From: Rhizomicrobium sp.
Lineage (GTDB): Bacteria; Pseudomonadota; Alphaproteobacteria; Micropepsales; Micropepsaceae
Direction of reading: 5' to 3'
Assembly (NCBI GenBank): GCA_037200385.1
Contig: JBBCGL010000001.1
Coordinates: 2,991,418-3,055,417 of the forward strand
DNA: 64,000 nt
Position numbers and translations under genes: made by a program. A model generated the notes under the pieces. It did not search any database and was not told the origin of the DNA. It worked only from the letters and a program-made list of their open reading frames with translations. This document shows, in pieces, positions 48,618 through 56,534 of the stretch (its first letter is position 1; each line of letters opens with the position of its first letter).

Positions 48618-50420
48618 CTAGGCTGTGGCCGCGGCAACGGCCGCAACCGTCTCGCGCGACGCTTCACGCACGACGAGGCTGAGCAGCAGGCCTTCATGTG
48701 CGACGACGAAGCGGCGCGCGATGAGTTCGTCCGCATGGGCGGCCGCGGCGCGGGACAGCTCGCCCGGCCGCCGCGGCCGTTCGAAGAAGGCGAGCGCTTC
48801 GTCGGCATCGTCCGAAAGCGGGATGATCGCCGGCAAGGTCAGGCCGCGCGTGTCCGCGACCATCGGCTTGCCGCCCTTGGTCCGGACCAGCTGCAGCCTG
48901 GGCTTGCGCCCGTCCCGCCACGACGCTTGCCAGCGCTTCACCGCGTCCGCGAACGCGGCGCGCAGCACCGCATCGTCGAGGAACGGCGTCGTATAACGCC
49001 CCCAGAAGTGGTAGGCGATGTCGTCGAGCGGCGCGTCCGGCGGATAAAGACCGTAATAGCTCTCGAACGGCTCCATCGCGGAAATGCCGAAGCTCGGCCC
49101 GTCGCTGTGATAGGGGCTGAAGCGATCGAGCATGATGCGCGAAAAGCCGTCCGGCGGGCACAGATGGACGAGCGCCGGCAGCAACGCGAGGACCTCGCGA
49201 TAGTGCTCGACCTGCTCGCCGGGGAAGCCATAAATCAGGTTCCAGCCGACCCGCACGCCATGGGTCTCGCACAGCCGCAGCAGATTGATGTTCTGATGCG
49301 CCGAAACGCCCTTGCGCATCAGCTTGAGCACGGGGGTCGAGAGCGACTCGATCCCCGGCTGGATCGAGACGATTCCGGCGCGCCGCATCGCGACGATCTG
49401 CGCTTCCTTGAGGTTCGCCTTGACCTCGTAGAACAGGTCCGGCCGGCTTGTCTTGGCGGCGAGACGCGGCAGGACGGCGTCGAAAAAGCTGGTCGGCATG
49501 ATGTTGTCGACCGTGCGGATCAGCCGTCCGGGCCAGGTCTCCGCGACCTGGGCGATCTCGGCGAGGACGCGGTCGGCGGTCTTTTCGCGGAAGGCCATGC
49601 CGCGGGCATTGAGGCCGCAGAACGTGCAGTGGTGCTTGGCGCCCCACCAGCAGCCGCGCGAGGATTCGTAATCGGCGAAGTGCGGCAGGGACGCCGGCAG
49701 CCGGCCGGCGGCCTGGAAGCCGCGCAACGCCGCCGCGAAATCGGTTTCGTCCGCGGCCGGCACCGTCGCCATGTCGGCGACGGGCTCGCAGGGCACGATG
49801 CGCGACGGCGGCCGTATCCCGCGGCGCAGGTAGTCCTCGCAGAACGCCGGAAAGACGATATCGCCTTCGCCGTCGAAGAAATAGTCGATGCAGTCGAACA
49901 CGCGGGCCAATCCCGTCGCCATCACGCCCGCGACATTGGCGCCACCGAGCACGATCAGCGCCTCGGGAAGCACCGCGCGCACGCGGCGCGCGATCGCGAA
50001 AGCGCCCATGCTCTGCTGGAAGGTGCTGGTGAGCGCGACGATGCGCGGATTGTGCGCCGCGATCGCGGCGGCGACCTCGTCCAGGTGCCCGGCGATCGAC
50101 GGCTGCATGAGGTCGATGAGCTCGCGCGAACGCGGCGGCTGGCCGAACTCCGGAATGTCCGACAGCGTCTCGGGCGCATAGGCGAAGGGCTTGAAGACGT
50201 ATTCGCCGGTCTGCTTCGTGGGCAGGACCGCGCAGACCTCCTCATAGAGGTCGTAACCCGCGCGCACGGCGAGCAGGAGGTTGGCGAAGACCGAGCCGAC
50301 CGTGAACCCCCGGGACCGGCAGGCGGCCGTGAGCACCGCGGCACCCAGCGGCGAGTGCTGCACCGACGCGAAAGCCGGTACGACAAAGCAGATGTCGGTC
50401 TGTCGAACGGTCGCGTGCAT
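48618..50420 (-). CDS. B12-binding radical SAM enzyme, RiPP C-methyltransferase type
   Basis: The 600-residue protein has an N-terminal cobalamin-binding-like Rossmann region (about 5-190, with [10 protein letters not shown]) and a radical SAM domain with Cys257, Cys265 and Cys268 in [17 protein letters not shown]. That C-x7-C-x2-C loop with CWWG and CGLN is the hallmark of the RiPP-maturation radical SAM group (TIGR03975). Such enzymes use SAM and B12 to methylate unreactive carbons in precursor peptides. No precursor, leader-binding or transport gene was found nearby. ATG 50420 is preceded by GAGGG. Confidence 0.88.
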
Positions 50421-50532
50421 GCGGGATTCCCTCTGCGCCAGCTTAGCGTGGAACGCGCCCCCCTGCATCTTTCTGTCAGCAGGCGACGGCGGCCGGGCTG
50501 CAAAGGCGTCCGTGAACGCCTATATTGGCCCC

Positions 50533-53004
50533 ATGGCGCACAATAACGGCATGGTTCCCCGCAAATCGAGCGGCAAGGGCTCGCGTTCCAAGGGGATGGA
50601 AGAGGCGGCGGCCAAGTTCCGCGCCGCAGTCGCAGCGGTTCCACTGGCGCCGGCCGGCGATGCCTATGATCCGGCGCCGCCCCCCGTCGGCGGAGCCGAC
50701 ACGCAGGCAACCGCGATCGTCGCGGACCAGGCCGCCGTCTTCGTGCCGCATCGCCCCACCCGCCCGGAAAAATCCGAGGGCGGCAAGCGCTTCAAGCTGG
50801 TCTCCGAATACCAGCCGGCCGGCGACCAGCCGACCGCGATCAAGGACCTCGTCGAAGGGTTGAACAATCCGGACGTCGTCAACCATGGCGTGATCGGCGA
50901 GCGCGACCAGGTGCTGCTCGGCGTCACCGGCTCGGGCAAGACCTATACGATGGCCCAGGTGATCGAGCGTACCCAGCGCCCCGCCCTGATCCTCGCCCCC
51001 AACAAGACGCTGGCGGCGCAGCTCTACAGCGAGTTCAAGAGCTTCTTCCCGGAGAACGCGGTCGAGTATTTCGTCTCGTATTACGACTACTACCAGCCCG
51101 AAGCCTATATCCCGCGCACCGACACCTATATCGAGAAGGATTCCTCGATCAACGAGGAGATCGACCGCATGCGCCATTCGGCGACGCGCGCGATCCTGGA
51201 GCGCGACGACGTGATCATCGTCGCCTCGGTCTCCTGCATCTACGGCATCGGCGCGGTCGAGACCTATAGCGGCACCGCGGTCACCATCACCAAGGGCAGG
51301 AAGCTCGACCGGATGGAGATGCAGCAGCAGCTCAGCGCGCTGCAATACCGCCGCAACGACAACAATTTCGTGCGCGGCGCCTTCCGCGTGCGCGGCGACA
51401 CGGTCGACATCTTCCCGGCGCATTACGAAGACCGCGCCTGGCGCGTCGAGCTGTTCGGCGACGAGGTCGACTCCATCACCGAGTTCGATCCCCTGACCGG
51501 GCGGCCCTATGGCGGGCTCGATACGATCAAGATCTACGCCAATTCGCACTACGTCACGCCGCGCCCGACGCTGCAGCAGGCGATCAAGGGCATCAAGGCG
51601 GAGCTGATCACGACGCTCGCGAACTTCCGCGCCAACGGCAAGCTGCTGGAAGCGCAACGCCTGGAGCAGCGCACGACCTTCGACATCGAGATGATCGAGG
51701 CGACCGGCAGCTGCGCCGGCATCGAGAACTATTCGCGCTGGCTGACGGGGCGCAAGCCCGGCGAGCCGCCGCCGACCCTGTTCGAATATCTCCCCGACCA
51801 GGCGCTGGTCTTCGCCGACGAGAGCCATGTGACGGTGCCGCAGATCGGCGCGATGTACAAAGGCGACTACCGCCGCAAATCGGTGCTCGCCGAATACGGC
51901 TTCCGCCTGCCCTCCTGCATCGACAACCGGCCGCTGAAATTCGAGGAGTGGGACGCGATGCGCCCCGCCACCGTCTATGTCAGCGCGACGCCCGGCCCGT
52001 GGGAGATGGAGCGCACCGGCGGCATCTTCACCGAGCAGGTGATCCGCCCGACGGGCTTGATCGATCCGCCCGTGGAAATACGCCCGGTCGAGCACCAGGT
52101 CGACGACCTGATTGCCGAATGCCGCGACAACGCGCGCAAGGGCTTCCGCGCTTTGGTCACCACGCTGACCAAGAAGATGGCGGAGGATCTCACCGAATAC
52201 ATGCACGAGCAGGGCATCCGCGTGCGCTACATGCACTCGGACGTCGAGACGCTGGAGCGCATCGAGATCATCCGCGACCTCCGGCTGGGCGCCTTCGACG
52301 TGCTGATCGGCATCAACTTGCTGCGCGAGGGCCTCGACATCCCCGAATGCGCCCTGGTCTGCATCCTCGATGCCGACAAGGAAGGCTTCCTGCGCAGCGA
52401 GACCAGCCTGATCCAGACCATCGGCCGCGCCGCGCGCAACGTGGACGGCAAGGTGATCCTCTATGCCGACCGCATCACGGGCTCGATGGAGCGCGCCATG
52501 GCCGAGACCGGCCGGCGCCGCGAGAAGCAGCGCGCCTACAACGCGGCGCACGGCATCACGCCCACCACGATCAAGCGCAACATCGCCGACATCATGGGCT
52601 CGATGTATGAGCGCGACCATGTCGTGGTCGACACGGGGATGAGCGAGGACGGCAAGGAATTCGTCGGCCACAACATCAAAGCCACCATCGCCGACATCGA
52701 AAAGCGGATGAAAGAGGCCGCCGCCGACCTGGAGTTCGAGGAGGCCGCTAGGCTGCGCGACGAGCTCAAACGCCTGACCGCGACGGAGCTGGCGATCAGC
52801 GACGACCCGTTCGCCCGGCAGAGCGAAGTGGACCGCGCGGTGGATGATGCGTTCCTGAAGGCGGTGCGCGATGGGTCCGGGAACGAAGACGGCGAGAGCG
52901 GTGGCCGCAGCGGCGGGCCGAAGCACCAGAAGACGAGCCGGAAGCGGATGCAGCGCGCGAGCCGGCCGGGCGTGCCGAAGACGTTTGGGAGTCGGAGTCG
53001 GTAG
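50533..53004 (+). CDS. uvrB: Excinuclease ABC subunit B
   Basis: The 823-residue protein is the damage-verifying helicase of nucleotide excision repair. It has an alphaproteobacterial N-terminal extension (to about residue 85), then the UvrB start [17 protein letters not shown], Walker A GVTGSGKT, the beta-hairpin [21 protein letters not shown] (Walker B), helicase motif QTIGRAARN and a UVR motif ([20 protein letters not shown]) that binds UvrC. The basic tail ends near the island. It converges on the reverse transcriptase with one base between stops. No LexA box was found upstream. Confidence 0.96.
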
Positions 53005-53005
53005 G

Positions 53006-54382
53006 TCAAACAACACGAAGTCGGCTGGCCTTTTCTTCTGCATCATTGCTAGGCGTGTCGCTCAACAGAGCTATGCCGAGAAGCCGCCTTCGTTGTTCAA
53101 TTTTTCGGGCCGCAATTTGACGTTCAAACCACTTCTGAAATGCTGCGATCCTTTGGTCGACTTTCGAGTCTAGTTGAGCGAATAACAAACGATCATTCGA
53201 CGCGCGAAATGCATCGCCCCAACCACGAATTTTTCTATCAATCAGGGCGAGGCTCTGGATGTAGCGTGGCTCAGCACGACGCAGCTGATCTTCGTTACCT
53301 GCAATTGCGCTCTTCGCTTTGGCGATCGCTTCGTCAATATCTGCAAGAAAGTCACCACAAGCTTGTCGGGACGGAGCTAAGCGAGACGGCTTGAGGTCAA
53401 ACGACAAAAACTGAAATCCAACGTGAACTGGCCCTGCGGCAGCCTTCTTGGAGCCCTTGTCAAATGGGTCGTGACATTCAAATCCCAACTTCTTCAGCAG
53501 CGCCGCGGCAGCGCGAAATGCTTTTTCGGTGGCTATTTTGCCTCGGCCCAATATTACGAAGTCGTCCAAATAACGAATTGTAACGACGCCACGTCGATTA
53601 AACTCAGAGTCAAATTGCGCAAGAACGATGTTGGCGCATAGCGCAGACAGCGCTGAGCCTTGCGGCACGCCGATTTCGCCCTTTGGAAATAGGCGCAAGA
53701 GAGCGCGAACTTCGTCTTCATTTTCGAGCTCTGTGCTGAGAGCATCCATGAATACGCGTACAAACTCTGAATCGGATATATTCTGAGCCAAAAAATCCTT
53801 CACGGCTTGTTTTGGAACCGCCTGAAAGAAGTCCTTCAAATCTGAGCGAACATACCACGTTGCACCGGCTGCCATCGCCTGACCAATCAGAGCTATGGCT
53901 TCGGGCACGCCACGTTCTGGCAGCCCCCCGACACTAGTGGGGCACCGCAAGACCTCGATCAGTCCGCCCAATCTCTTCTTAGTGGTCATATCGTCAGACT
54001 GGCAGACATCTAGTATGGCGCGCTGCACAATCCGGTTTTTGGCAGGAGCGACCACAATGGGCCGGGGTTCCTTTGGAGGTTCGCCTGGGCTCGATTTACG
54101 TTTCTTCAAAATGCCTTTTTGAGGTGAGAATTTATAGCTGCCGTCTCTCAAGGATCTCTGAAGTCTAGTAACGCTGAGATAAACGCTATCGCCGAAGGCG
54201 GCTGCATCTGCACGAGTCCGAGCATCTTTTGATTTTTCCAAGCGTGGGTGTACGCGCCGCCACGCGGCCTCAAGCACCGCTCGACTGGTTGCCCTGTCAA
54301 AGAGAAATGAATGCTTGTGTTGGTTGGGGCTCACTGTTGCCACGCAGTCCCGACCCTCAGATGTCGGCGTCTCTCGGAGCAC
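53006..54382 (-). CDS. Stand-alone reverse transcriptase, group II-like or defence type
   Basis: The protein has up to 458 residues. Motifs are RPIVVAPAKNRIVQRAILDV (107-126), the first catalytic Asp181 in VRSDLKDFFQAVP, GVPQGSALSALCANIVL (238-254), and YLDDF (271-275) with the catalytic Asp pair. The C-terminal thumb (IDRKIRGWGDAFRASNDRLL) resembles group II intron proteins, but no endonuclease follows. GTG 54382 is the longest start; GTG 54343, after GAGGG and outside the repeat, is more likely. It is AT-richer than its neighbours, suggesting transfer. DRT, retron or G2L class cannot be settled by eye. Confidence 0.88.
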   Translation of the reverse strand: MLRETPTSEGRDCVATVSPNQHKHSFLFDRATSRAVLEAAWRRVHPRLEKSKDARTRADAAAFGDSVYLSVTRLQRSLRDGSYKFSPQKGILKKRKSSPGEPPKEPRPIVVAPAKNRIVQRAILDVCQSDDMTTKKRLGGLIEVLRCPTSVGGLPERGVPEAIALIGQAMAAGATWYVRSDLKDFFQAVPKQAVKDFLAQNISDSEFVRVFMDALSTELENEDEVRALLRLFPKGEIGVPQGSALSALCANIVLAQFDSEFNRRGVVTIRYLDDFVILGRGKIATEKAFRAAAALLKKLGFECHDPFDKGSKKAAAGPVHVGFQFLSFDLKPSRLAPSRQACGDFLADIDEAIAKAKSAIAGNEDQLRRAEPRYIQSLALIDRKIRGWGDAFRASNDRLLFAQLDSKVDQRIAAFQKWFERQIAARKIEQRRRLLGIALLSDTPSNDAEEKASRLRVV

Positions 54383-54499
54383 GACGCTTGACCGTGGTCT
54401 AGCGCCGCGTCGATCCCCAACACCACGGCTAGGCCGTCGTGTCGTCCGCGCCCCTCAGCACCAGCATCCGAAGACCCAGCCCGCGACAGCGCGATCGAA
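54363..54499. repeat. 137-bp direct repeat, proximal copy
   Basis: This copy is identical base for base to 54721-54857. It contains a long stem-loop: CACGACG and CCGTGGT on one side pair with ACCACGG and CGTCGTG on the other. Its last 20 bp overlap the longest possible start of the reverse transcriptase. Orientation relative to that gene suggests a leader or template RNA. Confidence 0.85.
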
Positions 54500-54720
54500 G
54501 CCGCGATTATTGCGCAAAGCGCAACAATCAGTTGCGCCAATCTGGCGCGTTTTTACAGAACCGCATTTGCATCTCTCCAGCCTCTACCCTAGCGGGTTTT
54601 TGGCAAAGTCAAGCCGCAAAGCGACCCCGGCGACCGCCCTGCCCGTGTAAGAAAACCTATTCGCCGATTGATGTACGATTATTCGTAGCGTGGCCTCGGC
54701 GTTGAGGCTTATGGACCAGG
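54500..54720. ncRNA. Structured spacer between the repeats, candidate ncRNA
   Basis: On the minus strand, towards the reverse transcriptase, GCGCCA-GAT-TGGCGC (54534-54548) is followed by TTGCGC-TTT-GCGCAA. On the plus strand the first hairpin is followed by TTTTT (54550-54554), so it could end a plus-strand transcript. No convincing gene lies here. An RNA spanning repeat, hairpins and repeat is plausible but not shown. Confidence 0.35.
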
Positions 54721-54857
54721 GTCGGCGTCTCTCGGAGCACGACGCTTGACCGTGGTCTAGCGCCGCGTCGATCCCCAACACCACGGCTAGGCCGTCGTGT
54801 CGTCCGCGCCCCTCAGCACCAGCATCCGAAGACCCAGCCCGCGACAGCGCGATCGAA
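54721..54857. repeat. 137-bp direct repeat, distal copy
   Basis: This is an exact duplicate of 54363-54499, 358 bp further from the reverse transcriptase. Sequences on both sides differ from those of the other copy, apart from a short CAGTTGCGC(C)AATCT match that follows each at 30-41 bp. The stem-loop is preserved. Confidence 0.85.
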
Positions 54858-54861
54858 ACAG

Positions 54862-54957
54862 ATGGAACATGGGGAACTGAGCGAGTCGGATCAAGAGCAG
54901 TTGCGCAATCTTCCTGTCGACAACCGAAAGAAGATCGAGGAATCCGCAGGCCCCTAG
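54862..54957 (+). CDS. Possible 31-residue helical peptide
   Basis: ATG 54862 to TAG 54957 encodes MEHGELSESDQEQLRNLPVD and a further 11 charged residues, a strongly helical composition unlike random GC-rich sequence. The frame is open upstream through the repeat to 54706. It may be a small gene or the tail of a lost one within the island. No ribosome site is clear. Confidence 0.3.
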   Translation: MEHGELSESDQEQLRNLPVDNRKKIEESAGP

Positions 54958-55150
54958 CCAGACTGAGTGAAGCAGTCTGTGTTCGCTAGCGAGGAAACCA
55001 CCCCTGGCCTCTTATCTCCGAGCACTCCAAACCTCTCCCTGCTGCGCGCCTTCGCCTTTGCCGCCTCCACCTCGCGGTCCCGCGGTGGCGCCGCCGTCAC
55101 CAGGTCTTCGAGAAGGTGATGCGCCGGGTACGCATTTGGTGGCTTAGGAA
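54954..55150 (-). pseudogene. Decayed coding remnant at the island edge
   Basis: A minus-strand frame without a start codon reads PKPPNAYPAHHLLEDLVTAA, then acidic/basic helix (PRDREVEAAKAKARSRERFG) and stops at 54954. Codon use is GC-rich like the host, unlike the reverse transcriptase. It looks like the C-terminal piece of a host gene cut by the island or by the GCCCGC hairpin at 55158-55177. Identity unknown. Confidence 0.3.
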
Positions 55151-55210
55151 AATTGGGTCGCCCGCATGCGCGGGCGATGACGATGGGAAGGGGCTCAAGC
55201 TATCTCATTT

Positions 55211-55220
55211 CTGGTATATT
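55211..55220 (+). promoter_or_regulatory. Extended -10 of a leaderless XRE gene
   Basis: TGGTATATT (55212-55220) is a good extended -10. With six bases before ATG 55227, transcription should start at or next to the start codon. No -35 is apparent. Confidence 0.4.
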
Positions 55221-55226
55221 TCGGGG

Positions 55227-55505
55227 ATGAAGAGCTTTACCGCCTGGAAGCGCCAACAGCTGAAAGACCCCAGGGTCAAAGCGGCCTACGACGCGCTCGA
55301 AGAGGAGTTCGCGCTGATCCACGAGTTGCTCGCCGCGCGCACCCGCGCCAAGCTCACCCAGGCGCAGGTCGCGCGGCGCATGGGGACCTCGCAGTCCGCC
55401 GTGGCGCGGCTGGAGAGCGGGCGGTCGCCGTCGCTCGCCTCGCTGCGCAAACACGCCAAGGCGACCGGCAGCAAGGTCGAGATCAAACTGTCCAAGGCGG
55501 GCTAG
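55227..55505 (+). CDS. XRE/HigA-type helix-turn-helix antitoxin, orphan
   Basis: The 92-residue protein has an N-terminal helix (RVKAAYDALEEEFALIHELL) and an XRE helix-turn-helix (LTQAQVARRMGTSQSAVARL, then ESGRSPSLASLRKHAKATG). This is the layout of HigA antitoxins that sit next to RelE/HigB toxins. No toxin gene flanks it. The gene borders the reverse transcriptase island, and its predicted promoter gives a leaderless message. Confidence 0.85.
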   Translation: MKSFTAWKRQQLKDPRVKAAYDALEEEFALIHELLAARTRAKLTQAQVARRMGTSQSAVARLESGRSPSLASLRKHAKATGSKVEIKLSKAG

Positions 55506-55791
55506 TCTGGCGCGTGTTGGAAGCTTTGACGGTGCGCGCGGCGCGGCGGTTCTGCGCTCGCGGCCCGGCCGGTGGCGCCGGGCGGGTTCGCGGTATGCGC
55601 TGCGAGACCGATCGTCCCGCGCGATCAGTCACTTGAGAGCCGAGAACCCGATTGGCATGCCGGACAGGCGGCGCCCCCTCCCCCTCTCTTTCCGTGGTTT
55701 GAATGGGCGAAAATTGCGCACCGCCGTCCCGGCCACGTCTCGCGCAACAATCTTGCCGGCGACGGGTGTCCCGGGTTCCCCCGTTCCTCTC

Positions 55792-55821
55792 TTGCTATTC
55801 CGTTAGGAAAGGCGCTTATCC
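55792..55821 (+). promoter_or_regulatory. Possible cold-shock gene promoter
   Basis: TTGCTA (55792-55797), 18 bp and TTATCC (55816-55821) lie about 170 bp before the cold-shock gene, which would give it a long leader as in other csp genes. The rest of the 55506-55993 gap shows no gene. Confidence 0.3.
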
Positions 55822-55993
55822 GGCTTACGTGGTTTCACGGCCCCGTCAGACGAAGCGCTCCCAAGACACTGACCCGCTCAGCAGGCGCGCCGGCCGATGG
55901 AAACCCTTCCCGACAATCCTGATGTCCGTGCCGCCCGTCCGTTCGCGCGATGATCGCGCGCGCGGGAAATCGCTTTAGACCAGGAAAACGACC

Positions 55994-56197
55994 ATGACGA
56001 TCGGCACCGTAAAGTTCTTCAATACCTCCAAAGGCTTCGGCTTCATCGCACCGGACGGCGGCGGCAAGGACGTGTTCGTCCACGCCACGGCCCTCGAAGC
56101 GGCCGGCATGCGCACGCTCAACGAAGGCGACAAGGTCTCCTTCGACACGCAGCCCGATGCCAAGGGCAGCAAAGCCGTCAATCTGAAGTCGGCCTAA
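55994..56197 (+). CDS. cspA: Cold-shock protein (CspA family)
   Basis: The 67-residue protein is a single cold-shock domain, an RNA chaperone binding single-stranded nucleic acid. RNP1 is KGFGFIAPD and RNP2 VFVHATAL. AGGA lies 8 bp upstream of the ATG. A 488-bp gene-free stretch precedes it and could carry a regulatory leader. A GC-rich hairpin follows. Confidence 0.95.
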   Translation: MTIGTVKFFNTSKGFGFIAPDGGGKDVFVHATALEAAGMRTLNEGDKVSFDTQPDAKGSKAVNLKSA

Positions 56198-56208
56198 GTC
56201 GGATCGGC

Positions 56209-56238
56209 GCGCGGCGGCGGCTCCGGTCGCCGCCGCGC
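56209..56238. terminator. GC-rich stem-loop after the cold-shock gene
   Basis: GCGCGGCGGCG and CGCCGCCGCGC form an 11-bp stem with an 8-base loop, 12 bp after the stop. There is no T-run, so it may act as a pause, attenuator or mRNA end protector. Confidence 0.35.
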
Positions 56239-56261
56239 CGCCTCCTCCGCAAGGACATCCC

Positions 56262-56534
56262 ATGGCCTTCCACGATCCCCGCAATCCGCCGCCACGCAGC
56301 CGTGAAGGCATCCGCCGCAAGGCGATGGACCAGTTCGCCGTGCCGCGCCAGCCCGGCGGCACCATCCAGCGCGAGCTCGCGCTCGAGCGCGTCGCCGCCG
56401 ACGCCAACACCGCCAAGCTGCGCGCCCTGCGCCTCGCCAAGGAAGAGAGCGACCGCGAAGCCGCCGCCCTCGCCGCCGCGAACGCGCCGCCGCCCAAGCC
56501 CAAGAAGCCGCGCAAGACCTTCATCCTCGGCTGA
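56262..56534 (+). CDS. Small basic hypothetical protein
   Basis: The 90-residue protein has a Pro/Arg-rich start (FHDPRNPPPRSREGIRRKAM), a central helix (LALERVAADANTAKLRALRL) and a Lys/Pro-rich tail (PPPKPKKPRKTFILG). Composition suggests nucleic-acid contact. AAGGA lies 7 bp before the ATG. It follows the cold-shock gene by 64 bp and may be read through from it. Confidence 0.65.
   Translation: MAFHDPRNPPPRSREGIRRKAMDQFAVPRQPGGTIQRELALERVAADANTAKLRALRLAKEESDREAAALAAANAPPPKPKKPRKTFILG

What the first reader, a model, noticed from the sequence alone, without database searches (positions are those of the whole stretch)
54363..54857. Reverse transcriptase preceded by two identical 137-bp stem-loop repeats
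54363-54499 and 54721-54857 are identical over 137 bp, while the sequence around them differs. Each copy folds into a two-part hairpin (CACGACG/CGTCGTG and CCGTGGT/ACCACGG). The proximal copy ends at the start of the reverse transcriptase gene, in the place where retrons and DRT systems carry their template RNA. Perfect identity of a non-coding unit points to recent duplication, perhaps by reverse transcription of the leader RNA, or to selection on an RNA with two template domains.
Basis: partly seen in the sequence, partly recalled or inferred. Interest (0 to 1): 0.8.

Follow-up and report, generated by a model that had tools for sequence, protein, structure and literature searches.

The report
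Repeats let RT assemble hidden gene
Two identical DNA repeats in front of a bacterial reverse transcriptase appear to be conserved parts of a device in which the enzyme copies an RNA end over end and so joins up a small membrane-protein gene that does not exist in one piece in the chromosome.

Summary
In detail: 137 bp, identical, 358 bp apart, in a one-contig genome. It is not a recent accident. The enzyme is a group II intron-like 4 (G2L4) reverse transcriptase, a family published as a DNA-repair enzyme. Of 71 related loci with enough upstream sequence, 51 carry two or three copies of a repeat R, mostly 100-150 nt, in the same place; 15 of the other 20 have one recognisable R. R differs between loci; within a locus the copies are nearly or fully identical. 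The layout is R-spacer-R-RT. A small gene is split across it: start and membrane segment in the spacer's 3' end, middle in R, end in the spacer's 5' part. With the frame set at the membrane segment, it stays open into the sequence after R1 in 49 of 50 loci, but into the sequence truly following R2 in 8 of 50. The gene is whole only in spacer-R-spacer DNA, which R-to-R template switching would make. This resembles DRT2, with another RT, long repeats and a stop. No transcript, cDNA or protein was seen.

The parts
53006..54343 (-). G2L4-type reverse transcriptase gene (stop at 53006-53008, likely GTG start 54343-54341; catalytic motif YLDD)
   Evidence: RVT_1 50.9 bits; best PDB match G2L4 RT 9d5x, E 4.5e-62, 213 bits, next a group II intron RT at 60.5 bits; GTG position; YLDD
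54363..54499 (-). R2, the RT-proximal repeat copy; middle of the split gene and structured RNA
   Evidence: 100% identity; frame continuity; RNA covariation in relatives
54721..54857 (-). R1, the distal repeat copy
   Evidence: same layout in 51 of 71 related loci
54500..54720 (-). spacer (221 nt) between R1 and R2; with R it forms a 358-bp unit
54866..54894 (-). P1, promoter-like TTGATC-17-CATGTT whose -10 ends 8 nt before R1, so that transcripts would begin about at R1; weak
   Evidence: coordinates; a -10-like hexamer lies 5-9 nt before R1 in 33 of 58 loci against 4-17 in the other bins; strict two-box pattern 9 of 57 against 1.7 expected
54586..54612 (-). P2, promoter-like TTGACT / TAGGGT (15 nt apart) inside the spacer, pointing to R2 and the RT
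   Evidence: coordinates; pattern in 51 of 57 spacers against 6.0 expected, 83-120 nt before R2 in 49 of the 51
54549..54572 (-). short leader ORF: ATG at 54572 after GGAG, in phase with TGT AAA AAC (54557-54549), the proposed -1 frameshift site
54534..54548 (-). possible hairpin GCGCCAGATTGGCGC directly after the AAAAAC
   Evidence: coordinates; the lowest-energy fold of the 32 nt after the window's A-run pairs a different, later stem, so this hairpin has a competitor here
54363..54552 (-). first piece of the hidden gene: membrane segment (54552-54500) read into R2; in the real DNA this frame ends 29 nt after R2
54587..54857 (-). second piece of the hidden gene: R1 read into the 5' part of the spacer (54720-54587), stop TAG at 54586-54584

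Best explanation
A G2L4 reverse transcriptase with a template RNA in cis, whose two identical ends let it build a gene. Inferred steps: (1) P1 starts an RNA about at R1; it runs R1-spacer-R2. (2) The RT copies it toward the 5' end; having copied R1, the cDNA end pairs with R2 of the same or another RNA (as in strand transfer between retroviral R repeats) and goes on, giving (R-spacer)n cDNA, or a circle. (3) The double-stranded product has spacer-R-spacer junctions. There P2 drives one complete small gene: ribosome site and start codon, in most loci a -1 frameshift at AAA AAC, a membrane segment at the spacer/R junction, R, then the 5' part of the spacer and a stop. (4) The product, a ~110-aa membrane-anchored or secreted protein, is probably a growth-arresting effector, perhaps against phage. 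Shown from sequence: conserved layout, near-identity within loci, open split frame, membrane segment, promoter-like sites, RNA covariation, RNase H fused to the RT in six scanned loci. Not shown: the RNA, the cDNA, the frameshift, the protein, its effect.
For: Layout in 51 of 71 loci. Open split frame in 56 of 57 loci against 12.1 expected from shuffles. With the frame set by hydrophobicity at the spacer/R2 junction (and R2 open), it stays open >=100 nt into the post-R1 sequence in 49 of 50 and into the true post-R2 sequence in 8 of 50; the other two frames pass R and 100 nt more in 2 of 100. A hydrophobic stretch spans that junction in 50 of 57 in this frame, 2 and 2 in the others, 0 on the reverse strand. 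Amino-acid conservation over the whole gene is best in this frame in 8 of 8 clusters; pN/pS in R 0.47 against 1.27 and 1.30 in cluster A. R is more conserved than the RT gene in all 13 pairs that I chose. P2 pattern 51 of 57 against 6.0. The AAAAA motif at -40 to -95 is absent from the 10 loci classed as in-frame starts. RNase H fusions. In two three-copy loci the gene is contiguous.
Against: In 19 disjoint pairs the third-position excess is significant only in R (p 0.0098), not in the spacer parts. Clusters C and F show little pN/pS contrast in R, and in single spacer segments another frame scores as well or better in some clusters. The reverse strand is also open in 28 of 57, and the frame is open 45 nt upstream of R1 in 30 of 57. 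The frame was chosen as the open one, and stops in the other frames count against them. 18 of the 43 frameshift-class loci also have a loosely defined in-frame start candidate. 15 of 71 loci have a single R. The strict P1 count is modest (9 of 57 against 1.7). Published work treats G2L4 RTs as free-standing enzymes of double-strand break repair (PMC12337344, passages). DNA recombination between R1 and R2 would make the same circle without RT.
Confidence: 0.6

Rival explanations
1. The complete gene is made by homologous recombination between R1 and R2 at the DNA level, which excises an R-spacer circle; the RT does something else, such as DNA repair.
For: 15 loci have one recognisable R, by eye mostly with the flank that precedes R1 in relatives; one record holds the same locus twice, differing by exactly one 373-bp unit; three-copy loci exist. 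Published G2L4 activity is end joining.
Against: The repeats are tied to this RT family across several clades, and no other partner gene recurs among 20 neighbour genes scanned from 18 loci. RNase H fused to the RT in the six long RTs scanned points to RNA-DNA hybrids. Solo R in short-read assemblies may be collapse.
Confidence: 0.15
2. R1 and R2 are two structured domains of one non-coding RNA bound by the RT (a scaffold or a two-template RNA); the open frame is a by-product of GC-rich, structured sequence.
For: R has a lower energy than the shuffled mean in 10 of 10 copies folded and covaries in cluster A (22 both-side cells against 4.8 shuffled; 15 pairs against at most 9 when slid). Codon-position signal in the spacer is absent in disjoint pairs; the reverse strand is open in 28 of 57.
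Against: The frame-specific membrane segment exactly at the junction, and the contrast 49 of 50 against 8 of 50 after the same R sequence, are not expected from RNA structure.
Confidence: 0.12
3. Two ordinary small genes share a domain: one runs spacer-3' to R2, the other R1 to spacer-5', both translated from the chromosome.
For: Both halves are open in the DNA as it stands; the frame is open 45 nt upstream of R1 in 30 of 57 loci; in cluster A most R copies begin with ATG codons.
Against: A hydrophobic start across the upstream/R1 junction in the same frame exists in only 12 of 50 loci. By eye, not counted, many other loci, the window among them, have no start codon with a ribosome site at R1. 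Nucleotide identity of the two R copies would need another cause.
Confidence: 0.07
4. A mobile retroelement: the repeats are LTR-like and the cDNA is re-inserted in new places.
For: R begins about at a promoter-like site; RNase H fusions; some loci lie beside integrase-like genes or in viral contigs.
Against: Both repeats are on one side of the RT, no integrase recurs in the neighbours scanned, one element only in the window genome, and the main block of homology between two related loci runs from just before R1 to the RT end.
Confidence: 0.06

Closest known systems
G2L4 (group II intron-like 4) reverse transcriptases
   Same: The RT is a member by sequence: 213 bits to PDB 9d5x against 60.5 for the next family. 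No intron RNA family is found nearby.
   Different: In the passages seen (PMC12337344, PMC4244168) the RT is treated as free-standing and active in end joining, without upstream repeats, template RNA or hidden gene; a term search of PMC13015716 gave no hit for repeat, upstream or ncRNA. The active site is YLDD in the window, not YIDD.
DRT2 (Neo gene synthesis)
   Same: RT next to an upstream RNA region; repeated units in cDNA that complete a reading frame absent from the linear genome (PMC11100668, PMC12039810; passages).
   Different: The RT is not DRT2 (33.1 bits against cutoff 390). Template jumping there uses short ACA motifs and a 120-nt unit, here ~130-nt repeats and a ~360-nt unit; Neo has no stop, this gene does in most loci; the DRT2 promoter forms at the junction, here P2 is intact in the DNA.
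DRT10 / UG17
   Same: Repeat addition by realignment of cDNA between two identical segments of the RNA, A-B-A' (PMC12632851, passages); UG17 is the best named DRT model (118.9 bits).
   Different: A and A' are 2-4 nt there, the Eco3 repeat is 9 nt, and a SLATT protein is required; the passages seen report no encoded protein. The generic RT model scores higher than UG17 (126.6 bits).
Group II intron RT/maturase
   Same: NCBIfam group_II_RT_mat is the best NCBIfam match (116.6 bits).
   Different: Well below its cutoff of 300, and no intron RNA in the Rfam scan.
Retroviral R repeats and strand transfer (recalled, general knowledge)
   Same: Identical repeat at both ends of the RNA, the first beginning about at the transcription start; RNase H fused to some RTs.
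   Different: No gag or integrase found, no flanking LTRs; both repeats lie upstream of the RT.

Membership tests
G2L4 reverse transcriptase | Sequence relationship to known G2L4 RTs, above other RT groups | tested here: met
   213 bits (G2L4) against 60.5 (group II intron RT); profile A2 458 against 131 bits. PDB sequences only
G2L4 reverse transcriptase | YIDD at the catalytic site (PMC4244168) | tested here: inconclusive
   7 of 10 rows of A2 read YIDD; the window and L024 read YLDD, L010 FIDD
G2L4 reverse transcriptase | No group II intron RNA | tested here: met
   Rfam scan of 52500-56500 at E up to 1 found only a weak cspA match
G2L4 reverse transcriptase | Double-strand break repair activity | not testable with these tools
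   Biochemistry needed
DRT2 | Drt2 RT family | tested here: not met
   33.1 bits, cutoff 390
DRT2 | Gene completed only in repeated cDNA | tested here: inconclusive
   Predicted from sequence; no cDNA seen
DRT2 | Stop-less, never-ending frame | tested here: not met
   In the window the frame stops at TAG 54586-54584; most loci stop within the unit or soon after
DRT10/UG17 | UG17 RT with SLATT partner and short A-B-A' template | tested here: not met
   Generic RT model beats UG17; repeats ~130 nt. Window neighbours are an HTH gene and, by eye, uvrB and a cold-shock-like gene. SLATT was not searched for as such
Retron | Retron RT family | tested here: not met
   St85 model 34.6 bits, cutoff 235; no retron RNA in the Rfam scan
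Diversity-generating retroelement | Template and variable repeat that differ at adenines | tested here: not met
   R1 and R2 identical in the window and in 35 of 58 loci; the few differences in the three loci printed are not confined to adenines
LTR retroelement | Repeats flank the RT gene, with integrase | tested here: not met
   Both copies upstream of the RT; no recurring integrase in 20 neighbours scanned

The most novel reading that the evidence does not exclude
G2L4 reverse transcriptases, until now described as repair enzymes without an RNA of their own, are gene assemblers. Retrovirus-like transfer between two long identical R repeats on one RNA turns a permuted, chromosomally split gene into a complete one with its own promoter, a programmed -1 frameshift and a stop, and the gene's membrane protein is the effector. 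This would be a second, independent origin of genes that exist only as cDNA, and would put strand transfer between terminal repeats in bacteria.
Probability: 0.5. Interest if true: 0.95.

Novelty: new variant of a known kind. Interest (0 to 1): 0.87.

Why it matters
If right, it gives a family of well-studied enzymes (G2L4) a natural template and a different job, shows that gene assembly by reverse transcription is not a peculiarity of DRT2, and shows that annotation misses genes written in permuted order. It is directly testable, because it names the junction that must appear. The long R repeats may also explain why many draft assemblies break or lose a unit here.

Tried and rejected
Recent accidental duplication: rejected, the layout is conserved. 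Retron and DGR: rejected by RT family and by the lack of adenine-specific differences. Known RNA family: none near the repeats. Two repeats as assembly artefact: unlikely in the window (one contig) and in records called complete, such as NZ_CP131792.1 and AP019701.1. A contiguous version of the hidden protein in the phage or plasmid collections: no match with one 108-aa query from one locus; viral or genome contigs were not searched with it. Third-codon-position excess in disjoint pairs: significant only in R, a negative result for the spacer parts. Full-promoter count for P1: only 9 of 57 against 1.7 expected. Defence context: of 20 neighbour genes from 18 loci, two have integrase-like domains (one weak) and one is a restriction-modification methylase, and no partner recurs, so defence remains inference. 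Structure prediction of the hidden protein was not tried. Literature: ten papers hold 'G2L4' (listing); searches brought no listed paper whose title or abstract start describes these repeats or a split gene (one search listed 10 of 20). Park et al. 2022 (Cell, PMC9530004) is not held and was not read.

Dropped rows: the 80 loci are the best 80 of 106. L010, L012 and L023 were left out of the 58-locus set as duplicates of L066, L090 and L105; L095 (59-nt repeat) was left out of counts of 57; nine loci with under 500 nt upstream were left out of the 71. L092 and L093, both among the 71, look like one locus held twice.

Full report
Observation. The RT gene is on the minus strand, so in its direction the order is P1, R1 (54857-54721), spacer (54720-54500), R2 (54499-54363), RT (from GTG 54343). 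On one side an ORF that I take by eye for uvrB ends at 53004, one base before the RT stop codon; four genus relatives match the window up to there (52997-53005) and again only from 55045 or later, so the RT unit lies in a stretch that these relatives lack.

What the RT is. Pfam RVT_1; no named NCBIfam family reaches its cutoff. A profile of ten relatives (A2) hits the solved G2L4 reverse transcriptase with 458 bits, far above group II intron RTs (131) and Drt2 (41). The window protein alone gives 213 bits, the P. aeruginosa relative 402 bits. So this is G2L4, reported to act in double-strand break repair (PMC12337344, passages; PMC13015716, start of abstract).

The repeats are a family trait. 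In the first relatives, three of six loci showed pairs of 120-137 nt, and a fourth has one R by later comparison; of eight close viral-contig loci, six showed pairs of 120-138 nt and two begin at the RT. A scan of species genomes gave 106 relatives, of which 80 were kept. Nine have under 500 nt upstream because the contig ends there; of the other 71, 51 have a repeat pair scoring 100 bits or more, with R2 ending 48-98 nt before the RT match; two of these have three copies. Together with the window and six other loci this makes 58 loci: R median 133 nt, unit median 361, R1 and R2 identical in 35 of 58; the least alike are L032 (87.8%) and L067 (94.7%). Of the 20 without a pair, 15 have one R by blastn (partial in L042, L099 and L111) and 5 are unresolved.

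Concerted evolution. In 13 related pairs that I chose, R is more alike than the RT gene in all 13, for example 99.3% against 78.3% (L009/L018) and 76.8% against 58.0% (L043/L049), while within a locus the two copies differ at 0-3 positions, apart from one locus (L084) with a length difference.

RNA structure. R has a lower energy than the mean of its dinucleotide shuffles in the ten copies folded (z -1.0 to -4.4; the window is the weakest). In 20 R sequences of cluster A (19 distinct), the RNAalifold structure has 15 of 41 pairs with both-side changes (4.0 in shuffles; at most 9 in slid versions); as the structure came from this alignment and the rows are related, the controls flatter it.

The split gene. 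Reading spacer end, then R, then spacer start (an order that exists only if two units are joined), a frame runs through R in 58 of 58 loci, and strictly in 56 of 57 against 12.1 expected; but the reverse strand passes in 28 of 57, and the linear reading from 45 nt upstream of R1 in 30 of 57, so openness alone is weak. Stronger: a hydrophobic segment spans the spacer/R2 junction in this frame in 50 of 57 loci, in the other two frames in 2 and 2, on the reverse strand in none. Taking the frame from that segment, with R2 open as a condition (50 loci), it stays open at least 100 nt into the sequence that follows R1 in 49, but into the sequence that actually follows R2 in only 8; at 60 nt the counts are 49 and 15; the other frames, through R and 100 nt on, do so in 2 of 100 cases. 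The one failure, L084, has a length difference in R1. Amino-acid conservation against column shuffles, with stops penalised, is best in this frame for the whole gene in 8 of 8 clusters; taken segment by segment another frame is as good or better in the spacer 3' part of clusters C, D and H and in the spacer 5' part of B, D and G. pN/pS in R is 0.47 against 1.27 and 1.30 in cluster A, with weaker contrasts in the spacer parts and hardly any contrast in clusters C and F. Against: in 19 disjoint pairs the third-position excess is significant only in R.

Start and promoter. A TTGNN-TANNNT pattern is in 51 of 57 spacers (6.0 expected), 83-120 nt before R2 in 49 of the 51. Ten loci I class as in-frame: a ribosome site and ATG or GTG lie directly in the gene's frame. 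Forty-three I class as frameshift loci (40 by the script, three by eye): the start leads in phase into NNN AAA AAC (AAG once), and the gene continues in the -1 frame. In 18 of these 43 the script, with its loose ribosome-site rule, also lists an in-frame start. Four of the 57 (L032, L044, L046, L084) fit neither class. The AAAAA motif is found at -40 to -95 in 45 of 57 loci; in most the fold of the next 32 nt begins pairing within a few bases, but mean z against simple shuffles is only -0.88, and in the window the best fold is a later stem. The motif is absent from the 10 in-frame loci. Compensatory changes in the hairpin were seen by eye and not counted. Unit length is 1 mod 3 in 36 of 43 frameshift loci and 2 mod 3 in 8 of 10 in-frame loci, as expected if the distance from stop to next start is kept; many of the 43 are close relatives (17 of 24 outside cluster A). 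The window is of the frameshift type; its frame has a TAA just before the AAA codon, and the script found no in-frame start with a ribosome site.

R at the transcription start. A -10-like hexamer ends 5-9 nt before R1 in 33 of 58 loci, against 4-17 in other bins; the strict two-box count is lower (9 of 57 against 1.7). If right, the RNA begins with R and carries R again further on, which is what strand transfer needs.

RNase H. Six of six long RTs scanned (L010, L044, L046, L048, L054, L055) carry a C-terminal RNase H domain; ten loci, L066 among them (the same locus as L010), have C-terminal extensions of 158-182 aa.

Mechanism. I think the RT copies R1-spacer-R2 RNA, switches from R1 to R2, and makes (R-spacer)n DNA in which P2 expresses the complete small membrane protein. 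DRT2 provides the precedent (PMC11100668, PMC12039810; passages), with different RT, different jump and a stop-less product. G2L4's reported annealing of short complementary ends fits such a switch. Effector and phage defence are inference; neighbours give little support. Recombination between R1 and R2 remains a live rival: one record (CP051228.1) holds what looks like the same locus twice at 99.9% identity, differing by exactly one 373-bp unit.

Novelty. In the library searched I saw no paper that describes these repeats or this gene (listings, and passages of the papers named); the founding G2L4 paper is not held.

Noticed in passing
L092 and L093 (CP051228.1, 46 kb and 4.895 Mb): The same locus twice in one record, 99.9% identical but for exactly one 373-bp R-spacer unit; probably overlapping contig ends that caught both states, or an assembly error.
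   Followed up: partly
L050 and L080, upstream of the RT: Three R copies with periods of 376 and 361; here the otherwise split gene is contiguous in DNA.
   Followed up: partly
L044, L046, L048, L054, L055, L010/L066 RT genes: RNase H domain fused to the C-terminus of a G2L4-like RT.
   Followed up: yes
L036, L047, L052, L062, L068, L073, L083, L098, L109, L019, L020, L013, L014: Contigs that end within about 450 nt upstream of the RT or at it, as expected if the repeat breaks short-read assemblies.
   Followed up: partly
window 50281-53004 and L048 259-3297: A uvrB gene (by eye in the window, by Pfam in L048) next to the RT element in two distant genomes, in different orientation; may be chance.
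   Followed up: no
spacers of 53 of 57 loci, about 90-150 nt before R2: A second AAAAA(C/G) motif lies in the P2 region and sometimes, by eye, also looks followed by a small hairpin; unexplained.
   Followed up: no
window 55929-56240: Weak match (22.4 bits, gathering 78) to the cspA thermoregulator at a cold-shock-like gene.
   Followed up: no
L009, P. aeruginosa plasmid NZ_CP131792.1: The RT unit sits near genes annotated as site-specific integrase, recombinase and TIR-domain protein.
   Followed up: no
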